Shown in pieces: positions 1 to 17,654 of a stretch of 41,531 nucleotides of DNA. Below the pieces are notes generated by a model. That model ran no database searches. It worked only from the letters and a program-made list of their open reading frames with translations, and was not told where the DNA came from. Made by a program: the position numbers and the translations under genes. The stretch's first letter is position 1, and the number at the start of each line of letters is the position of its first letter. The stretch comes from Bacteroidota bacterium (lineage in GTDB: Bacteria; Bacteroidota; Rhodothermia; Rhodothermales; UBA10348): the NCBI GenBank assembly GCA_027622005.1, contig JAQBZH010000003.1, positions 1-41,531 of the forward strand, read 5' to 3'.

Positions 1-28
1 CCCGAAGGGGCCGCGCCTCTTTCAAACT

Positions 29-9777: not shown

Positions 9778-11334
9778 TTATGAGTTAAATCCGACCGTAC
9801 GGCCCTGAATGATTGGTTGACCAATCGAACGAAACGCGTGCATAGCTTCCACCTTGTCATCAAAATGGATTTTTTCAGTCCCAATCACCTGGTAGGTTTC
9901 ATGTCCTTTCCCAGCCAGCACCAGGGTATCGCCTTCGGACATGCGACTAACGGCGGTCGCAATGGCTTCCCGACGATCCACCATCCACAAAGCCTTATTC
10001 TCATGCTTAAATCCTTTCTTGATATCGTCTAAGATGTCGAGGGCATTTTCCGTTCTTGGATTGTCGCTAGTTACAACCACGTGATCAGCCCATTTTTCGG
10101 CAATGGCCCCCATTTGAGGTCGCTTTCCGCGATCACGATCCCCTCCGCAGCCAAACACGCACCAGAGTGAGCTTCCCTTCGACAAACTCTCCCGAACGGT
10201 GCTGAGCACATTCTCCAAAGCATCCGGTGTGTGGGCATAGTCGAGAATCACCGTTGAACCGGTTTCGGTCTGAAACGCCTCCATTCGACCGATTACGGGT
10301 GGACAGGCGGCCAAGCTTTCTCGAACTATTGTACTTTCCATTCCGAGCGAGAGGCACGCCGTGTAAGCAGCAACCAAATTGGCTGCATTAAAGGCCCCTG
10401 CCAGTTTAAACGTCGTGGTTGTACCATCAAGATCAAGCACAAGTCCGGACAATGCGTTTCCCCGAATGGCGTATGTGATGTCCGCCAGGGTCGATTGGCC
10501 ATAGCTCGTTACCTTTCCCTTCGTATTCGACACCATGACCAACCCGCGCTCGTCATCCAGATTTGTAACAGCGCACGAGCTAGTTACTAGCTCATCAAAT
10601 AGCTTCTTCTTGCTGGCCTGATAGTTTTCAAACGTTTGATGATAATCCAGATGATCACGGGTCAAATTCGTGAATATGGCTACGTCGACATCTGACGTTC
10701 GAAATCTGGATTGATCAATCGCGTGGGAAGAGGCTTCGATGCTACACGCCTTCATACCAGACTGCACCATTCCAGCCAAAAGCTCATGAAAGACGATAGC
10801 GGAAGGTGTCGTATGAGATGCCTCTACCTCCACAACACCGTACCGATATCCGGTGGTCCCCAAGAACCCTGCAGGGGTTCCGCTTTGATTCAATACCCAG
10901 GAAACCAGCGTCGCAACAGTCGTTTTTCCGTTGGTTCCGGTTGTAGCTATCAACTTCAACTCTCGACCAGGGTCTCCGTTTAACAACGAAGCCAATTCTG
11001 AAAGGGCATGGTGCGAGTTTGTTACGCGGGCAAAGGCGGGGCCGGAAGGATCCTCGGGGAAAACCTCACGATTTCTCGGTTGGCTTCTATCCCCATTGAT
11101 GATCTCATCTTCCGGCCCCACCTCGCTCACTATAGCAATAGCTCCGTTTTTTACAGCCTTGTCAATGAACAGGTGGCCGTCCGCGTGTGTCCCTTTTATA
11201 GCGACAAAACAATTGGACTGCCCGACTTCCCGACTATCTATAGCCAGCCGGTCGCACTGAACATTCAGGGGATTCGAGAAACTTACTAGAAGTCCCTTGT
11301 CCTTTAATCGATCTATGCACGTTGAAAAATGCAC
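9778..11334 (-). CDS. murE: UDP-MurNAc-L-Ala-D-Glu--meso-diaminopimelate ligase MurE
   Basis: Cytoplasmic ligase adding the third residue of the stem peptide. The 518 residues contain the P-loop GTNGKTT (133-139), the HTTPSA substrate segment (174-179), NLTRDHLDYH and DYAHTPDAL. The motif DNPR (424-427) is the established marker of meso-diaminopimelate rather than lysine specificity, so the wall is predicted to be DAP-type. The start is GTG. No ATG is available before the first domain, and an AAGGA lies about 11 nt upstream. It sits 37 nt after ftsI. Confidence 0.97.
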   Translation of the reverse strand: MHFSTCIDRLKDKGLLVSFSNPLNVQCDRLAIDSREVGQSNCFVAIKGTHADGHLFIDKAVKNGAIAIVSEVGPEDEIINGDRSQPRNREVFPEDPSGPAFARVTNSHHALSELASLLNGDPGRELKLIATTGTNGKTTVATLVSWVLNQSGTPAGFLGTTGYRYGVVEVEASHTTPSAIVFHELLAGMVQSGMKACSIEASSHAIDQSRFRTSDVDVAIFTNLTRDHLDYHQTFENYQASKKKLFDELVTSSCAVTNLDDERGLVMVSNTKGKVTSYGQSTLADITYAIRGNALSGLVLDLDGTTTTFKLAGAFNAANLVAAYTACLSLGMESTIVRESLAACPPVIGRMEAFQTETGSTVILDYAHTPDALENVLSTVRESLSKGSSLWCVFGCGGDRDRGKRPQMGAIAEKWADHVVVTSDNPRTENALDILDDIKKGFKHENKALWMVDRREAIATAVSRMSEGDTLVLAGKGHETYQVIGTEKIHFDDKVEAMHAFRSIGQPIIQGRTVGFNS

Positions 11335-11371: not shown

Positions 11372-13462
11372 CTATTTCGACGAAAGCGTCGCCGTCTGTA
11401 AGAGCTCACCGCCAGGCTCAGGCCACTGAGATTCGACCATTCCATGGCCTGTTACCTCTACCTTAACCCCGAGCTTTGTCAACTTCGCGATCGCATCCCT
11501 GAGCGAAAGTCCAATTAAATCAGGCATCGCCTTGGGAATTAAAATGCCCTTATAAGAATCCGTTTGAACCGAAATTCCCGGCTCCGCCTTCGCTCCCGGC
11601 AGTACAACATTTTGCTTGGTCACATAGTCAACAAAGGATGCACTTTTCTGCGTTCTGAGGCCCAACGCCCCTACTTGGCGTGATGGAAGTCCCGAAGACA
11701 TCACGTCTTGAAATGGAATCCCCGCGGGGACTAACCGGGTTAGTAACGAATCCTGATGAATAAACGGTGTCATCTCCGGCATGTTGGCCAGCCATCGCTC
11801 GGTTGTCCTTTTGAAAACGGGTGCAGCCACGACACCGCCATAAATGCTTGTCCGCGGCGCATCCATCAACACCAATAACACGATTTGAGGGTCTTCGACC
11901 GGGTAAAAACCGACAAAGGTGGCCCGGTAGTCACGGTTGGCATAGTTTCCGCCTCTGGCCGTTTTAGCTGTTCCGGTCTTACCGGCAACTCGAAGGCCGG
12001 GAACGGCTGCTTGACCCGCTGTCCCACCAACGCCAACAACGGATTCGAAGGCGGGCATGATCGTAGCGGCAGTTTCCTTTTTAAACGCCCGGCGGATCGA
12101 GTCTGGACGTGCCGTCCAAATGGTGTTTCCCTGTGCGTCTCTTTTTTCCTGTACGATATAGGGCCGCTTCAGAATTCCGCCGTTGGCTAATGCTGCATAA
12201 GCAAGCGCAATCTGGAGCGGCGTCCCCTCAATTCCGTACCCACGACTCATGCCCGAATGAGTACTCCTGCTCCACTTGTCAATCGTTAGAACTCTGGTAC
12301 TTAGTGCCTCTCCCGGCAGCTCGATATAGGTTGGTTGATTAAACCCAAGATTGACGGCATGCTTGTAGAACTCACCTTTATCCGTCATCTCAGATACAAT
12401 GGCCGTTCCAATATTGCTGGACACCTTGATCACTTCACTGAAGGATATTCTACCGTGTGGCACGGTATCGCTTAGGTCAAAGCCATGCAATCGAATCGTA
12501 CCCGATACGCCGGTGTCGATCATGGTATCCATACCCACGACACCCGACTCAATGGCCGCAACGGCCGGAAGGACCTTCATGGTCGAGCCGGGCTCGATCA
12601 TGTCGGAAATGGCGTGATTTCGGAGCTGCGTCTCAGTGGCAAAAACTCCACTATTCAAATCAAACGTTGGATAGTTGGCCATGGCCCGCACTGCCCCCGT
12701 TTTCACATCAATTGCGATCGCGGTGCCCCAATTAGCTCCAGATTCCATCACACCGCGTTCAAGTTCTTCTTCGAGGATGGCTTGTTGGTTAAGATCTATG
12801 GTGAGCACCAACGAAATGCCGTGAACCGGGTCCTGTATCAGGCCACCCGGAATCGGTCTTAAAACCCCTTTACGATCCCTTTTTGTCGTTCTCTGTCCCG
12901 AAAGTCCTGCAAGCTCTTTGTCAAATTCCTTTTCAAGACCCGTCAAACCATTGTCCGTACCCATAAACCCGACCACGTGGGCTGCGGTTGGGCCGTACGT
13001 GTACTTCCGGCGTGTTTCCCGGTTGATGATGACAAATGGGTACTCTTCAAGAAGGCGAATATCCCTGTCCGAGAACGTCGCGTTTCGAACGAGTTGGGTA
13101 AACATCCGACTGCGACTGCGCTCGACCTTTCCCTTCAATGCGACCACAGTTTGCCCGGACATCTCCGAAAACTGTTCAAAAAACATTTCTGAATCGGTCT
13201 CAAACTGATTGGCTGTTGGGTCAACCGCGATGTCGTATTTCTCAATATTGATGGCCATCGCGCGGCCCTTGGAATCCAGAATCACACCCCGGGTTGGAGG
13301 AAGCGTTTGATACGATGTGGACTGAACGGCTACTTGCTCTCGGAGCTGAGGCCCGTCCAGAACAGAGATTTTCATAACCTGAAAAGCCACAAGAATCGGT
13401 AGGAGACTCACCAACGTGATCACCACATACATTCTTGCAAAAATCTGCTCTTTAGGTTCCAT
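11372..13462 (-). CDS. ftsI: Septal class B penicillin-binding protein (FtsI/PBP3) with PASTA domain
   Basis: DD-transpeptidase that cross-links septal peptidoglycan as partner of FtsW. The 696-residue protein has one N-terminal membrane anchor (about 10-30), a dimerisation/pedestal domain (RGVILDSKG near 58-66) and a transpeptidase domain with all three motifs: STMK (293-296, nucleophile Ser293), SSN (348-350) and KTG (495-497). A single PASTA repeat lies at about 642-690, after a linker. The PASTA tail is unlike E. coli FtsI but is known in Bacteroidota and SpoVD-like proteins. The ATG start is 3 nt after the ftsL stop. Confidence 0.96.
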   Translation of the reverse strand: MEPKEQIFARMYVVITLVSLLPILVAFQVMKISVLDGPQLREQVAVQSTSYQTLPPTRGVILDSKGRAMAINIEKYDIAVDPTANQFETDSEMFFEQFSEMSGQTVVALKGKVERSRSRMFTQLVRNATFSDRDIRLLEEYPFVIINRETRRKYTYGPTAAHVVGFMGTDNGLTGLEKEFDKELAGLSGQRTTKRDRKGVLRPIPGGLIQDPVHGISLVLTIDLNQQAILEEELERGVMESGANWGTAIAIDVKTGAVRAMANYPTFDLNSGVFATETQLRNHAISDMIEPGSTMKVLPAVAAIESGVVGMDTMIDTGVSGTIRLHGFDLSDTVPHGRISFSEVIKVSSNIGTAIVSEMTDKGEFYKHAVNLGFNQPTYIELPGEALSTRVLTIDKWSRSTHSGMSRGYGIEGTPLQIALAYAALANGGILKRPYIVQEKRDAQGNTIWTARPDSIRRAFKKETAATIMPAFESVVGVGGTAGQAAVPGLRVAGKTGTAKTARGGNYANRDYRATFVGFYPVEDPQIVLLVLMDAPRTSIYGGVVAAPVFKRTTERWLANMPEMTPFIHQDSLLTRLVPAGIPFQDVMSSGLPSRQVGALGLRTQKSASFVDYVTKQNVVLPGAKAEPGISVQTDSYKGILIPKAMPDLIGLSLRDAIAKLTKLGVKVEVTGHGMVESQWPEPGGELLQTATLSSK

Positions 13463-14093: not shown

Positions 14094-15083
14094 TTAAAGG
14101 TCATCGCCAAAAGCCTGCCTCTCAGCTATCCTGAGCCGCGCGCTGCGACTCCGAGGATTGACGATTTGCTCGGCTTGGTCGGCAGTGATCGGCTTCCGAT
14201 TGATCTCGACCCAGGGTGTCAGTTTATTTCCATATAGGTCCTTTTTTATCTCTCCTTCCAGATTTCCTGTTCGCAAAAAGTGCTTCGCCCGCCGATCCTC
14301 TAAGGAGTGATAGCTTATGATGGCCAAACGCCCCCCTAAGGATATCAAATCGATCGAGTCCCGAAGGACCTGATCCAACACGTCCAACTCTCGATTCACG
14401 GCAATTCGTATTGCTTGAAAAACTCTGGCCAATGTTTTGGCCTCCTGACCTCGAGGTGCAGCCCAACGCACCACTTCAGCAAGTTTTTCTGTCGTCAAAA
14501 TGGGTCGAGCCTTCACGATGTCCCGAGCAATTCGCCTGGCTTTGGGTTCCTCTCCATATTGAAACATCACGTGCATCAAATCCGACTCTTCCATTTCGTT
14601 AACCAATTCGGAAGCACCAAAAGCCTGGCCCGAGTCCATTCGCATGTCCAAAGGCCCTTTCATTCGGTGGCTGAACCCTCGCTCCGCCTCATCTAATTGA
14701 TGGGAGGAAACTCCAAGGTCAAGCAGTAGGCCGTCGACCTGGGTTATTCCAGCTGCATCCAAAAGGGACGCCATATCGCCGAAATTACCTTTTAGAATGC
14801 GGAGTCGTTCGTTTGACAAGGCAGGTGCCAGTCGTTTAGAAGCTTCCGCAATAGCGTCTTCATCTTGATCGATAGCTATAACAGAGCCGGATGCTGACAA
14901 GGCATCCAATAGGGCTGCGGTATGTCCCCCGCCACCCAAAGTGCCATCAACATAGACCCCGTCTTTTCGAGTGACGAGTCCCTGAATAACATCATGACAA
15001 AGAACAGGCGCGTGATAGCTCGAAGCGTAATTCAACCAAGGCTCCGTGTTATCCCGCGCATTTAAATCTCCAGTTGGATTCAC
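14094..15083 (-). CDS. rsmH: 16S rRNA (cytosine-1402-N4)-methyltransferase RsmH (MraW)
   Basis: SAM-dependent enzyme that makes N4-methylcytidine at 16S position 1402 in the decoding centre. The 329 residues begin with a short variable tail, then HAPVLCHDV, the SAM motif GTLGGGGHT (47-55), the LLLDLGVSSHQLD segment, RGFSHRMKGPLDMRMD, and the C-terminal ISYHSLEDR and RSRSARLR motifs. The start appears to be a GTG at 15081-15083, 7 nt after the mraZ stop. An out-of-frame ATG 2 nt upstream is followed at once by TGA. It is the second gene of the dcw operon, as in most bacteria. Confidence 0.97.
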   Translation of the reverse strand: MNPTGDLNARDNTEPWLNYASSYHAPVLCHDVIQGLVTRKDGVYVDGTLGGGGHTAALLDALSASGSVIAIDQDEDAIAEASKRLAPALSNERLRILKGNFGDMASLLDAAGITQVDGLLLDLGVSSHQLDEAERGFSHRMKGPLDMRMDSGQAFGASELVNEMEESDLMHVMFQYGEEPKARRIARDIVKARPILTTEKLAEVVRWAAPRGQEAKTLARVFQAIRIAVNRELDVLDQVLRDSIDLISLGGRLAIISYHSLEDRRAKHFLRTGNLEGEIKKDLYGNKLTPWVEINRKPITADQAEQIVNPRSRSARLRIAERQAFGDDL

Positions 15084-15090
15084 ATCAGTT

Positions 15091-15534
15091 TTAGGATCCC
15101 ATCACTTTTTCAGCTAAGGTTTCCTGATCGTCAGTATGGTCCTGCAAATAGTCGGCGAAACGCTCAGGATTCCACAATTCTATGCGATCCATAGCGCCAA
15201 TAATGAGCACTTTGTCCCCAATGCCTGCGTAATCCGAAAGCGCCTTTGGAAGGGAAATACGTCCTTGACCGTCTAGAGAAACCTCTTCGGCCCACATCAA
15301 AATCATTCGAACTAGATGTCTAGCGTCCCGATTGTTGGTGTTAAGGCGACCGTATTCGTCTTCCTTAATTTTCCATTGGTCCAGCGGATAAACGTAAATG
15401 CATGGCTCAAACCCTTTTGTCAACGTGAACGTACCCCCAGCATCCGGGCTTAATGCTAATCGCATTTTAGCCGGAATGGCAGTCCGTCCCTTCGAATCGA
15501 CGGAGTATTCAGCCTGACCTTTGAAACGTGCCAT
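15091..15534 (-). CDS. mraZ: Transcriptional regulator MraZ
   Basis: DNA-binding regulator of the dcw operon built from two AbrB/SpoVT-like halves. Both halves show the family motif: an SVDSKGRTAIPAKMR-like segment at about 11-25 and a SLDGQGRISLPKAL segment at about 86-99. The 147-residue length is normal (E. coli 152). In E. coli the MraZ ring binds direct TGGGN repeats with 5-nt spacers and represses its own operon. The leader upstream of this gene holds matching repeats at 15612-15627, so autoregulation is inferred. The ATG start lies about 95 nt downstream of the candidate transcription start. Confidence 0.97.
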   Translation of the reverse strand: MARFKGQAEYSVDSKGRTAIPAKMRLALSPDAGGTFTLTKGFEPCIYVYPLDQWKIKEDEYGRLNTNNRDARHLVRMILMWAEEVSLDGQGRISLPKALSDYAGIGDKVLIIGAMDRIELWNPERFADYLQDHTDDQETLAEKVMGS

Positions 15535-15611
15535 GGTGGTGGGATGAGGTTCTCTGCACGGATTTTTCCGCGTGAATGTGGGATCAGAGGAAAGTCACGA
15601 ATGGGAAGACT

Positions 15612-15627
15612 CCCCACTTTTCCCCAC
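15612..15627 (-). promoter_or_regulatory. Candidate MraZ operator (two TGGGG boxes, 10-bp period)
   Basis: Reading the minus strand, GTGGGG occurs at 15627-15622 and again at 15617-15612. This gives TGGGG-N5-TGGGG, exactly the spacing of the TGGGN-N5 repeats bound by E. coli MraZ. The pair lies just downstream of the candidate promoter at 15637-15664 and about 80 nt before mraZ, where binding would block transcription. E. coli has three repeats and only two perfect ones are seen here. Recognition by this MraZ is inference. Confidence 0.55.
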
Positions 15628-15636
15628 ACAAACGGT

Positions 15637-15664
15637 AATGTACGTTTTTACCCGCGAAAGTCAA
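15637..15664 (-). promoter_or_regulatory. Candidate promoter of the mraZ/dcw operon
   Basis: On the minus strand TTGACT (15664-15659) is followed after 16 nt by TACATT (15642-15637), a good sigma70-like -35/-10 pair. Transcription would start near 15630, just ahead of the TGGGG boxes. Bacteroidota primary sigma factors often prefer a different consensus (TTTG/TANNTTTG), so the match is suggestive only. Confidence 0.4.
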
Positions 15665-15722
15665 GCATTTTCGGCGCGTTAAAACCCTCCAAATTGAGGA
15701 GAAAAGCCGAATTTGGGCAGAT

Positions 15723-15830
15723 TGGGGGATGGTGGGGAGAAATTGTGGACAGTGTGCATAACTATGTCACAAAAATGCACCAAATCCAGCACGTGAACAC
15801 CTGGCTCAAATCGAGGGGGGAAAGGTGGGG
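15723..15830 (+). promoter_or_regulatory. Two further TGGGG-type repeat pairs in the dcw leader, opposite orientation
   Basis: On the plus strand TGGGG occurs at 15723-15727 and 15733-15737, again with a 5-nt spacer. A degenerate pair follows: GGGGG at 15816-15820 and TGGGG at 15826-15830, also 10 bp apart. They lie 110-200 bp upstream of the first operator and on the opposite strand. They may be auxiliary MraZ sites or G-rich sequence of another role. The rest of the 422-nt gap 15535-15956 has no convincing gene. Confidence 0.35.
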
Positions 15831-15932
15831 AAGTGGTCCTGGCACACCGGCTTAAAAGGGCTATCGTTCCGGCGCCAAGATCGCTCGGAACAGCATGGAT
15901 CGACCAGAGGACTAGGCTCCTAAAAGGCGCCT

Positions 15933-15949
15933 TCGGACGGTTCGTCCGA
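15933..15949 (-). terminator. Hairpin after pyrG, possible terminator
   Basis: A perfect 6-bp stem (TCGGAC/GTCCGA) with a 5-nt loop starts 7 nt beyond the pyrG stop. On the minus strand it is followed by a GC palindrome (AAGGCGCCTT) and TTTT. The stem is short and the T-run is not adjacent, so it is a weak terminator candidate separating pyrG from the dcw operon. Confidence 0.3.
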
Positions 15950-15956
15950 TCCATTA

Positions 15957-17654
15957 TTACATCTTAGCCGAAGCTAAATGGTGTTTTTTCTTCGCATTTG
16001 GCCCTTTGGGCTTTTCGAGACTGTTGGTTTCTTTGGCGTGCTCGACGCAGGCTCGAACAAACGAGTTGAACAGCGGGTGGGGGTTGCCAACCGTACTTTT
16101 GTATTCCGGGTGAAATTGGACCCCAATAAAAAATCTCAAATCCGGAAGTTCAATAATTTCGACTAGGTCCCGCTTCGGGTTAACTCCAGTGAACAACATG
16201 CCGTGCTCGGCCAATTTGTATCGCAACACGTTGTTTAATTCATACCGGTGGCGATGACGCTCTTTGACGGCTTTCCTTCCGTAGATCTCACTCGCTTTAG
16301 ATCCCTCCAAAAGACGGCAGGTATATGCCCCTAAGCGCATCGTTCCGCCTTTTTCGGAAATTGTCCGCTGCTCGTTCATCAAGTCAATGACTGGGTGACT
16401 AGTCTTTGGATTAAACTCAGTAGAATGCGCTGTTTTCCATCCGCACACGTTGCGAGCGAACTCGATAACGGCGCATTGCATCCCTAAACAGATTCCAAAA
16501 AATGGAATATCGTTCTCTCGGGCAAATCGTATGACTTCCACTTTGCCTTCAATGCCACGACCGCCAAAACCGGGGGCAACCAAAATACCTGAGACATCAC
16601 CCAAAAGGCTCTTTACGTTTTCTGCGGTAATATCATCCGAAAGCAATTGTTTTAACTCTACCTCGACGCCGTTCGCTGCCCCAGCCAGGATAAAACTCTC
16701 ACAGATGGATTTGTACGCGTCCTGGTGGTTAACATACTTTCCGACCAACGCTACCTTAACGGTACCCGTCGGCTCTTTCAATTGTCGCAAAAACCGAACC
16801 CATCCGTCCATATCCGGGGAATCGAGCAACCGGCCTCCAAAATCTTCCTCCATGCGGAGCCGTTCAACGGCAATCGTGTCAAGACCTTGCTCTCTCATCA
16901 GCAAGGGCACTTCATAAATCGATTCTGCATCGAGTGCAGCAATAACCGCGCGATGTTCAACGTTACAAAACAGCGCAAGCTTCCGCTTTACGTCGTCGGG
17001 TAACGGTCTATCCATCCGGCAGACTAAAATGTCTGGTTGCAGACCAAAAGAGAGAAGCGTTTTCACGGAGTGCTGGGTCGGCTTCGACTTCAGTTCACCG
17101 GCAACTGCCAAATATGGCACTAAGGTCAGGTGGATATTCAGCGTGTTGCGGGTACCGAGTTCATACCGGAGCTGACGAATGGCTTCCAAATAGGGTTGCC
17201 CTTCAATATCCCCCACCGTTCCCCCGATTTCGGTGATGATAACGTCGTAATCCTCCGACTCACCCAGTTTCAGCATCCAGTGCTTGATTTCGTCGATAAT
17301 GTGGGGGACAACCTGTACGGTCTTGCCCAAATAGGCGCCGCTTCGTTCTTTATTAATGACTTCCAGATAAACCCGGCCGGTGGTCACGTTATTGGCCTGG
17401 CTGGTGGGAACCCCCAAAAACCGCTCGTAGTGTCCTAGGTCGAGGTCCGTTTCGGCTCCATCATCCGTAACAAAGACTTCCCCGTGCTCATACGGGTTCA
17501 TGGTGCCGGGATCCACATTGATGTATGGATCAAACTTTTGAATGGTCACTCTAAGGCCACGATTTTCAAGCAATCGACCAAGAGAGGCACAAATAATTCC
17601 TTTACCCAGCGAAGATGTGACTCCGCCGGTTACAAATACATACTTGGTTTGCAC
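15957..17654 (-). CDS. pyrG: CTP synthase PyrG
   Basis: Makes CTP from UTP using ATP and glutamine-derived ammonia. The N-terminal synthase domain starts with [15 protein letters not shown] (P-loop about 10-19) and continues through [12 protein letters not shown] (41-52) and [10 protein letters not shown]. The class I glutamine amidotransferase domain (from about 298) has the nucleophile Cys389 in FGICLGMQ and His515/Glu517 in VQFHPEY. The 565-residue length includes a lysine-rich tail (about 549-565) beyond the usual end. The start is GTG with AGGGA a few nt upstream. It has its own leader with two hairpins and is separated from its neighbours by 122 and 422 nt, so it is probably transcribed alone. 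Confidence 0.98.

What the first reader, a model, noticed from the sequence alone, without database searches (positions are those of the whole stretch)
15612..15830. Three sets of TGGGG repeats at 10-bp period in the dcw leader: probable MraZ operators, two of them far upstream and inverted
Seen: TGGGG-N5-TGGGG on the minus strand at 15612-15627, the same on the plus strand at 15723-15737, and a degenerate pair at 15816-15830. Known: E. coli MraZ binds TGGGN repeats separated by 5 nt near its promoter. Inference: this mraZ autoregulates through a proximal site at about +4 to +19, and the upstream inverted sites may allow looping or co-operative binding.
Basis: partly seen in the sequence, partly recalled or inferred. 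Interest (0 to 1): 0.55.

Follow-up and report, generated by a model that had tools for sequence, protein, structure and literature searches.

The report
Mirrored MraZ operators beside DnaA box
In front of a bacterium's cell-division gene cluster lie the expected control site for its repressor MraZ and, in its genus, a mirror-image second copy at a fixed distance next to a site for the DNA-replication starter DnaA, which hints that replication and division may be tied together here.

Summary
The three TGGGG pairs are real. (1) The proximal pair (15612-15626, minus) is the MraZ operator: it starts 9 nt after the mraZ -10 box, and GTGGGG-N4-GTGGGG stands upstream of mraZ in 90 of 103 Rhodothermales genomes (relaxed form in 100 of 103). 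(2) The distal inverted pair (15723-15737, plus) is conserved in 6 of 6 genomes of the genus, always 110 bp from the proximal pair across an unconserved but indel-free spacer; second copies of this motif cluster at mraZ and almost nowhere else. (3) The degenerate third pair (15816-15830, plus) is conserved in 6 of 6. Also new: the distal pair adjoins a consensus DnaA box (TTATGCACA here, TTATCCACA in the other five). TTATCCACA lies within 350 bp upstream of the mraZ operator in 28 of 103 genomes, 11 of 43 genera. Best reading: MraZ represses mraZ-dcw from the proximal operator, helped by the distal one, probably across a promoter loop, with DnaA as a likely second input. Binding, looping and DnaA action are inferred, not shown. 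Proximal site: known kind. Distal composite: a new variant.

The parts
15091..15534 (-). mraZ, 147 aa, first gene of the dcw cluster
   Evidence: TIGR00242 115.2 bits over cut-off 98.35; PDB MraZ chains match, best 1n0e E 3.1e-16
15637..15664 (-). mraZ promoter TTGACT-16-TACATT
   Evidence: identical hexamers and spacing in 6 of 6 genus genomes; CTTGACATT/CTTGACTTT are the most widespread upstream 9-mers of the order
15612..15627 (-). proximal MraZ operator GTGGGGAAAAGTGGGG, starting 9 nt after the -10 box
   Evidence: GTGGGG-N4-GTGGGG in 90 of 103 relatives, relaxed form in 100 of 103; distance to -10 is 8-10 nt in 70 of 71 promoters found
15602..15606 (+). third half-site of the proximal operator, inverted (TCCCA on the mraZ strand), same 10-bp register
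   Evidence: CCCA at this register in 75 of 90 operators
15723..15737 (+). distal inverted TGGGG-N5-TGGGG pair, auxiliary MraZ operator (inferred)
   Evidence: conserved in 6 of 6 genus genomes at constant 110 bp; locus-specific motif
15753..15761 (-). DnaA box TTATGCACA (consensus TTATNCACA); TTATCCACA in the other five genus genomes
15744..15752 (-). second, weaker DnaA-box-like nonamer CTGTCCACA, abutting the first
   Evidence: 8 of 9 columns invariant in 6 genus genomes
15816..15830 (+). third, degenerate inverted pair GGGGG-N5-TGGGG downstream of pyrG
   Evidence: present in 6 of 6 genus genomes; 202-204 bp from the operator in five, 224 in one

Best explanation
This is the control region of the mraZ-led division and cell-wall (dcw) cluster of a Rhodothermales bacterium. 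MraZ binds the proximal GTGGGG-N4-GTGGGG-N6-CCCA operator just downstream of the transcription start and represses its own cluster. The upstream inverted pair(s) are auxiliary MraZ operators; because the distal one is held at exactly 110 bp with the promoter in between, the MraZ ring most likely bridges or co-binds both sites and closes a loop over the promoter. A DnaA box beside the distal pair probably lets DnaA modulate that complex. Shown: sequences, conservation, spacing, locus-specificity. Inferred: MraZ binding to each pair, the loop, DnaA binding and its sign.
For: Proximal operator in 90 of 103 mraZ upstream regions, 8-10 nt from the -10 box in 70 of 71 promoters found. GTGGGGNNNNGTGGGGA gives 48 matches in 41 whole genomes against 3 for the backwards control; 45 lie at mraZ, and 9 of these are second copies, 8 of them inverted. 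The distal pair is 110 bp from the proximal pair in 6 of 6 genus genomes; the 59 bp from pair to -35 have no indel although pairwise identity is 31-75%, while operator-to-ATG varies 93-120; only 6 of 56 spacer columns are invariant against 33 of 41 in the box-plus-pair block. Inverted CCCCA words upstream of the operator in 100 regions prefer a spacing of exactly 10 (5 genera, next best 2). No promoter like the proximal one precedes the inverted pairs on their own strand. Literature: the B. cenocepacia MraZ site is four 7-nt repeats with 3-nt spacers, downstream of the -10, overlapping the start site (PMC7761207, passages).
Against: No binding data for any Rhodothermales MraZ. The 110-bp inverted architecture is confined to one genus: of 394 genomes across the phylum only the window's own matched (the five sister genomes were not in that draw). 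Other genera carry inverted pairs at other distances or none. Two of the nine second copies (G015, G019) lie inside an open frame on the opposite strand and may be coding accidents; one (G035) is direct and 939 bp away. The window's distal pair has TTGGGG rather than GTGGGG in its first box, so it does not match the strict pattern.
Confidence: 0.7

Rival explanations
1. The distal block is a DnaA-binding platform, not a MraZ site: TTATCCACA plus abutting CTGTCCACA and C-rich weaker boxes bind DnaA, which regulates the dcw promoter or titrates DnaA.
For: TTATCCACA occurs only 12 times in the genome and 7-17 times in each of 14 relatives, yet lies within 350 bp upstream of the operator in 28 of 103 genomes, 11 of 43 genera, 6 of 14 families; of 1679 permutations the best reached 5 genera. 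Its position is constant within genera and constant (-72) across two genera of one family.
Against: The distal pair has the MraZ motif itself, GTGGGG-N4-GTGGGGA, in five of six genus genomes, not a DnaA box. E. coli DnaA prefers box pairs 2-3 bp apart and only 13 of 32 TTATCCACA sites were seen bound (PMC11317965); here the second box abuts with 0 bp and has 2 mismatches. 75 of 103 genomes lack an exact box.
Confidence: 0.17
2. The inverted pairs are operators of a divergent or antisense transcript on the plus strand.
For: They are direct repeats when read on plus; a divergent open frame lies upstream in G031.
Against: In the window the upstream gene pyrG is co-directional; the best promoter-like match ahead of the inverted pair scores 5-8 of 12 with differing hexamers in the six genus genomes, against 9 with one set of hexamers for the proximal promoter in all six.
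Confidence: 0.06
3. The C-rich tracts are Rho-utilisation sites or parts of the pyrG terminator.
For: On the mraZ strand they are C-rich, G-poor, weakly structured (-3.4 kcal/mol, z 0.23) and follow pyrG.
Against: The exact 10-bp period and fixed 110-bp distance to the operator are not expected; in G024 the CCCCAC array sits some 860 bp beyond pyrG yet at its usual distance from the operator.
Confidence: 0.05
4. The proximal element acts as RNA (5' hairpin) or G-quadruplex rather than as a MraZ operator.
For: TGGGGAGTCTTCCCA can pair; a G-quadruplex in the S. aureus mraZ promoter is reported (PMC11796246, passages).
Against: The 41-nt fold is not better than shuffles (z -0.79); genus g24 of family f15 has three or four direct repeats instead, so the third slot keeps register, not pairing.
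Confidence: 0.03

Closest known systems
MraZ operators (MraZ boxes) of E. coli, Mollicutes, Burkholderia cenocepacia
   Same: G-rich TGGG/GTG repeats at 10-bp period just downstream of the mraZ -10 box (B. cenocepacia: PMC7761207; Mollicutes AAAGTG[T/G] direct repeats: PMC8475190; E. coli form recalled, paper not held)
   Different: two direct boxes plus an inverted third one, and in this genus one or two further inverted pairs upstream at nearly fixed distance; searches listed no description of such distal sites
DnaA-controlled division genes (B. subtilis ftsL, C. crescentus ftsZ)
   Same: DnaA acting at the control region of division genes (PMC8203912, passages)
   Different: here the box lies upstream of mraZ itself and adjoins an inverted MraZ-type pair; searches listed no report of a DnaA box at a mraZ promoter
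Repression loops with two operators flanking a promoter (gal, lac; recalled)
   Same: two operators about 110 bp apart enclosing the promoter, length kept constant
   Different: no loop demonstrated; the repressor is an AbrB-like ring protein and the operators are mirror images

Membership tests
MraZ operator (proximal pair) | TGGG-type repeats with 10-bp period | tested here: met
MraZ operator (proximal pair) | overlaps or follows the start site of mraZ | tested here: met
   8-10 nt after the -10 box in 70 of 71 promoters found; start sites not mapped
MraZ operator (proximal pair) | cognate mraZ gene | tested here: met
   TIGR00242 over cut-off
MraZ operator (proximal pair) | three or more direct repeats | tested here: inconclusive
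   two direct, third inverted in 75 of 90; direct third box in G054 and in genus g24 of family f15
MraZ operator (both pairs) | binds MraZ | not testable with these tools
   needs gel shift or ChIP
Auxiliary MraZ operator (distal pair) | same motif, specific to the mraZ locus | tested here: met
   45 of 48 motif matches in 41 genomes lie at mraZ, 9 as second copies
Auxiliary MraZ operator (distal pair) | fixed spacing to the promoter | tested here: met
   110 bp in 6 of 6, no indels; not so outside the genus
DnaA box | match to TTATNCACA | tested here: met
   TTATGCACA 15753-15761; TTATCCACA in five sister genomes
DnaA box | paired boxes 2-3 bp apart (E. coli in vivo rule) | tested here: not met
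   second box abuts (0 bp) with 2 mismatches (rule from PMC11317965)
DnaA box | bound by DnaA | not testable with these tools
   needs ChIP or footprint
Repression loop | simultaneous occupancy of two operators with DNA bending | not testable with these tools
   needs phased footprints, AFM or tethered-particle data

The most novel reading that the evidence does not exclude
A composite replication-division switch: MraZ rings on mirror-image operators close a loop of about 110 bp over the dcw promoter, and DnaA bound at the box beside the distal operator opens or locks that loop, so that the state of replication initiation sets division-gene transcription. In other Rhodothermales families the DnaA box sits 61-72 bp ahead of the operator, suggesting that the DnaA link is older than the loop.
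Probability: 0.27. Interest if true: 0.72.

Novelty: new variant of a known kind. Interest (0 to 1): 0.5.

Why it matters
How bacteria tie division-gene expression to chromosome replication is an old question, and MraZ, the widely conserved dcw regulator, has few known inputs. A leader with mirrored MraZ operators at fixed spacing and a DnaA box, the latter conserved across genera, gives a concrete promoter on which to test both MraZ cooperativity over distance and DnaA control of the dcw cluster.

Tried and rejected
Rfam scan of the whole window: no match at gathering score. RNA folding of the proximal operator and the distal tract: no excess stability. A second promoter-like hit at 15770-15742 was rejected: its -35 region is not conserved in the genus alignment. 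oriC at this locus was rejected: on contigs that hold both genes, mraZ lies 34 kb from the best dnaA in G029, roughly 95-210 kb in G012, G013, G014, G017, G026 (across the record end), G032, G034 and G035, and over 500 kb in G030. A DnaA-motif scan around dnaA in 8 loci showed no box cluster and does not help to establish the lineage's own box. The phylum-wide pattern scans found nothing outside Rhodothermales: one genome for the inverted-pair pattern, two for DnaA box plus operator, of 394 each; both draws held only part of the order. Other widespread upstream words (ATATGTGTG, AGGTGAAAA, GATGAACTC) were not followed. Three paper searches gave nothing on MraZ-DNA structure or looping, though PDB MraZ entries beyond 1n0e exist (9qlr, 9sx6, 9qlg).

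Full report
WHERE. The window lies on a contig of a draft genome (G000, 2.79 Mb, 96 contigs). Its MraZ is 83-92% identical to that of five MAGs labelled Rhodothermales, Bacteroidetes or just bacterium. On minus run mraZ (15091-15534, TIGR00242 over cut-off), rsmH (14094-15083, TIGR00006), an unnamed 176-aa frame in the ftsL place (no family hit; position only), a division-type penicillin-binding protein (11372-13462, no model over its cut-off) and murE (9778-11334); upstream and co-directional is pyrG (15957-17654, CTP synthase). So this is a dcw cluster with a 422-nt gap before mraZ.

OBSERVATION. The two exact TGGGG-N5-TGGGG pairs are there and exceed chance. Genome-wide there are 9 exact pairs (backwards control 3); the 7 others lie in long open frames. 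The third, degenerate pair is GGGGG-N5-TGGGG.

PROXIMAL PAIR. In the first 30 genomes oriented and read, the window's own included, the same-strand TGGG-N6-TGGG pair was present in 30 of 30. In the order-wide search 104 of 114 genomes had mraZ; 103 had usable upstream DNA. GTGGGG-N4-GTGGGG was found in 90 of 103 and the relaxed TGGG-N6-TGGG in 10 more, all of one genus, g24; the remaining three show variant repeats by eye. A TTGACW-15..19-TANNNT promoter was found for 71 of the 90, and in 70 of 71 the operator starts 8-10 nt after the -10. This matches B. cenocepacia, where the MraZ site is four repeats downstream of the -10 box overlapping the start site (PMC7761207, passages).

THIRD HALF-SITE. 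In 75 of 90 operators the next 10-bp slot holds CCCA, an inverted box, at one fixed register. In the window it is TCCCA on the mraZ strand (15602-15606). In G054 and in genus g24 the slot holds another direct box. The slot is kept and its orientation varies, which favours protein contact over an RNA hairpin; the RNA fold is no better than shuffles (z -0.79).

DISTAL PAIR. In all six genomes of the genus the inverted pair is present, 110 bp from the proximal pair (window -92 and -202; others -93/-203, -93/-203, -95/-205, -94/-204, -119/-229). The 59 bp between pair and -35 have equal length in 6 of 6 although pairwise identity is 31-75%; operator-to-ATG distances are 93, 94, 95, 94, 120, 96. 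In the indel-free alignment, invariant columns are 8 of 9 (DnaA box), 8 of 9 (second nonamer), 17 of 23 (up to and including the pair), 6 of 56 (spacer), 24 of 29 (promoter), 19 of 26 (operator). The length is kept where the letters are not, as expected if helical phase matters.

LOCUS SPECIFICITY. GTGGGGNNNNGTGGGGA in 41 whole genomes gives 48 matches, the backwards pattern 3. By position I count 36 proximal operators, 9 second copies at mraZ (five in this genus, G015, G019 and G031 inverted; G035 direct, 939 bp up) and 3 elsewhere, no more than the control. G015 and G019 lie in an open frame on the other strand and may be accidental. Upstream of the operator in 100 regions, inverted CCCCA words are spaced exactly 10 in 5 genera (10 genomes); the next best spacing has 2 genera. 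The related genus g9 has a longer inverted CCAC array at period 9-12, and in G031 (family f8) a DnaA box directly precedes an inverted pair.

DnaA BOX. On the mraZ strand the conserved block begins with TTATGCACA in the window and TTATCCACA in the five sisters. TTATCCACA is rare: 12 in G000 and 7-17 in 14 relatives, of the same order as its backwards control. In the 350 bp upstream of the operator it occurs in 28 of 103 genomes, 11 of 43 genera, 6 of 14 families; only two -35 words are in more genera, and ATATGTGTG ties at 11. Of 1679 permutations the mean was 0.19 genera and the maximum 5. Positions are fixed within groups: -134 (5 of 5 with the exact box in g1), -109 (3 in g3), -146/-147 (5) or inverted -176 (2) in g9, inverted -71 (3 in f4), -72 (3, two genera, in f9), -61 or -69 (4 in f12, a fifth inverted at -91), with single cases at -117 inverted (G028) and -322 (G031). 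These counts are not independent, since relatives share ancestry. Against binding: E. coli DnaA prefers boxes 2-3 bp apart, and only 13 of 32 consensus boxes were bound in vivo (PMC11317965, passages); here the second nonamer abuts and has two mismatches; 75 of 103 genomes have no exact box.

THIRD PAIR. CCCCAC followed by a C-run at the 10-bp period (mraZ strand) is present in 6 of 6 genus genomes, 202-204 bp from the operator in five and 224 in the sixth (distances worked out from its positions and those). It is degenerate and nearer pyrG; I regard it as a probable weaker box pair.

ALTERNATIVES. A plus-strand promoter ahead of the inverted pair is not seen: in the six genus genomes the best matches score 5-8 of 12 with differing hexamers, against 9 with identical hexamers for the proximal promoter. 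Outside Rhodothermales neither arrangement was found in the sampled phylum.

LITERATURE. Searches listed no paper on distal or inverted MraZ operators, on looping by MraZ, or on a DnaA box at a mraZ promoter; I judged this from the listings and from passages of eleven papers, and most subscription journals are not held. DnaA binding at B. subtilis ftsL and C. crescentus ftsZ promoters is known (PMC8203912, passages), so DnaA control of division genes as such is not new.

VERDICT. The proximal pair is an ordinary MraZ operator with an inverted third box for which I found no description. The distal inverted pair is a real, conserved, locus-specific element, most likely an auxiliary MraZ operator at fixed distance, coupled to a DnaA box. 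The loop and the DnaA role are good, testable hypotheses and no more.

Noticed in passing
G000:C15:5300-5785 and G000:C3:154912-155397: Most genomes of the window's family carry two DnaA (PF00308) homologues far over the cut-off; most of the other families sampled have one. In genus g3 a TTATCCACA lies 0.5-2 kb upstream of the second copy in four of four genomes.
   Followed up: partly
upstream of mraZ in several families, about -100 to -250 from the operator: Other recurrent words, ATATGTGTG/ATATGTGCA (up to 11 genera) and AGGTGAAAA, hint at further conserved sites in the mraZ upstream region.
   Followed up: no
L022, L024 (genus g3), upstream of mraZ: A near-palindromic GTGTAAATATATACAC-like sequence stands before a divergent open frame next to mraZ; looks like the operator of another regulator.
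   Followed up: no
15835-15956: The window genome has roughly 100 extra bases after pyrG that the five sister genomes lack, with a hairpin-like inverted repeat at about 15933-15949 seen by eye.
   Followed up: no
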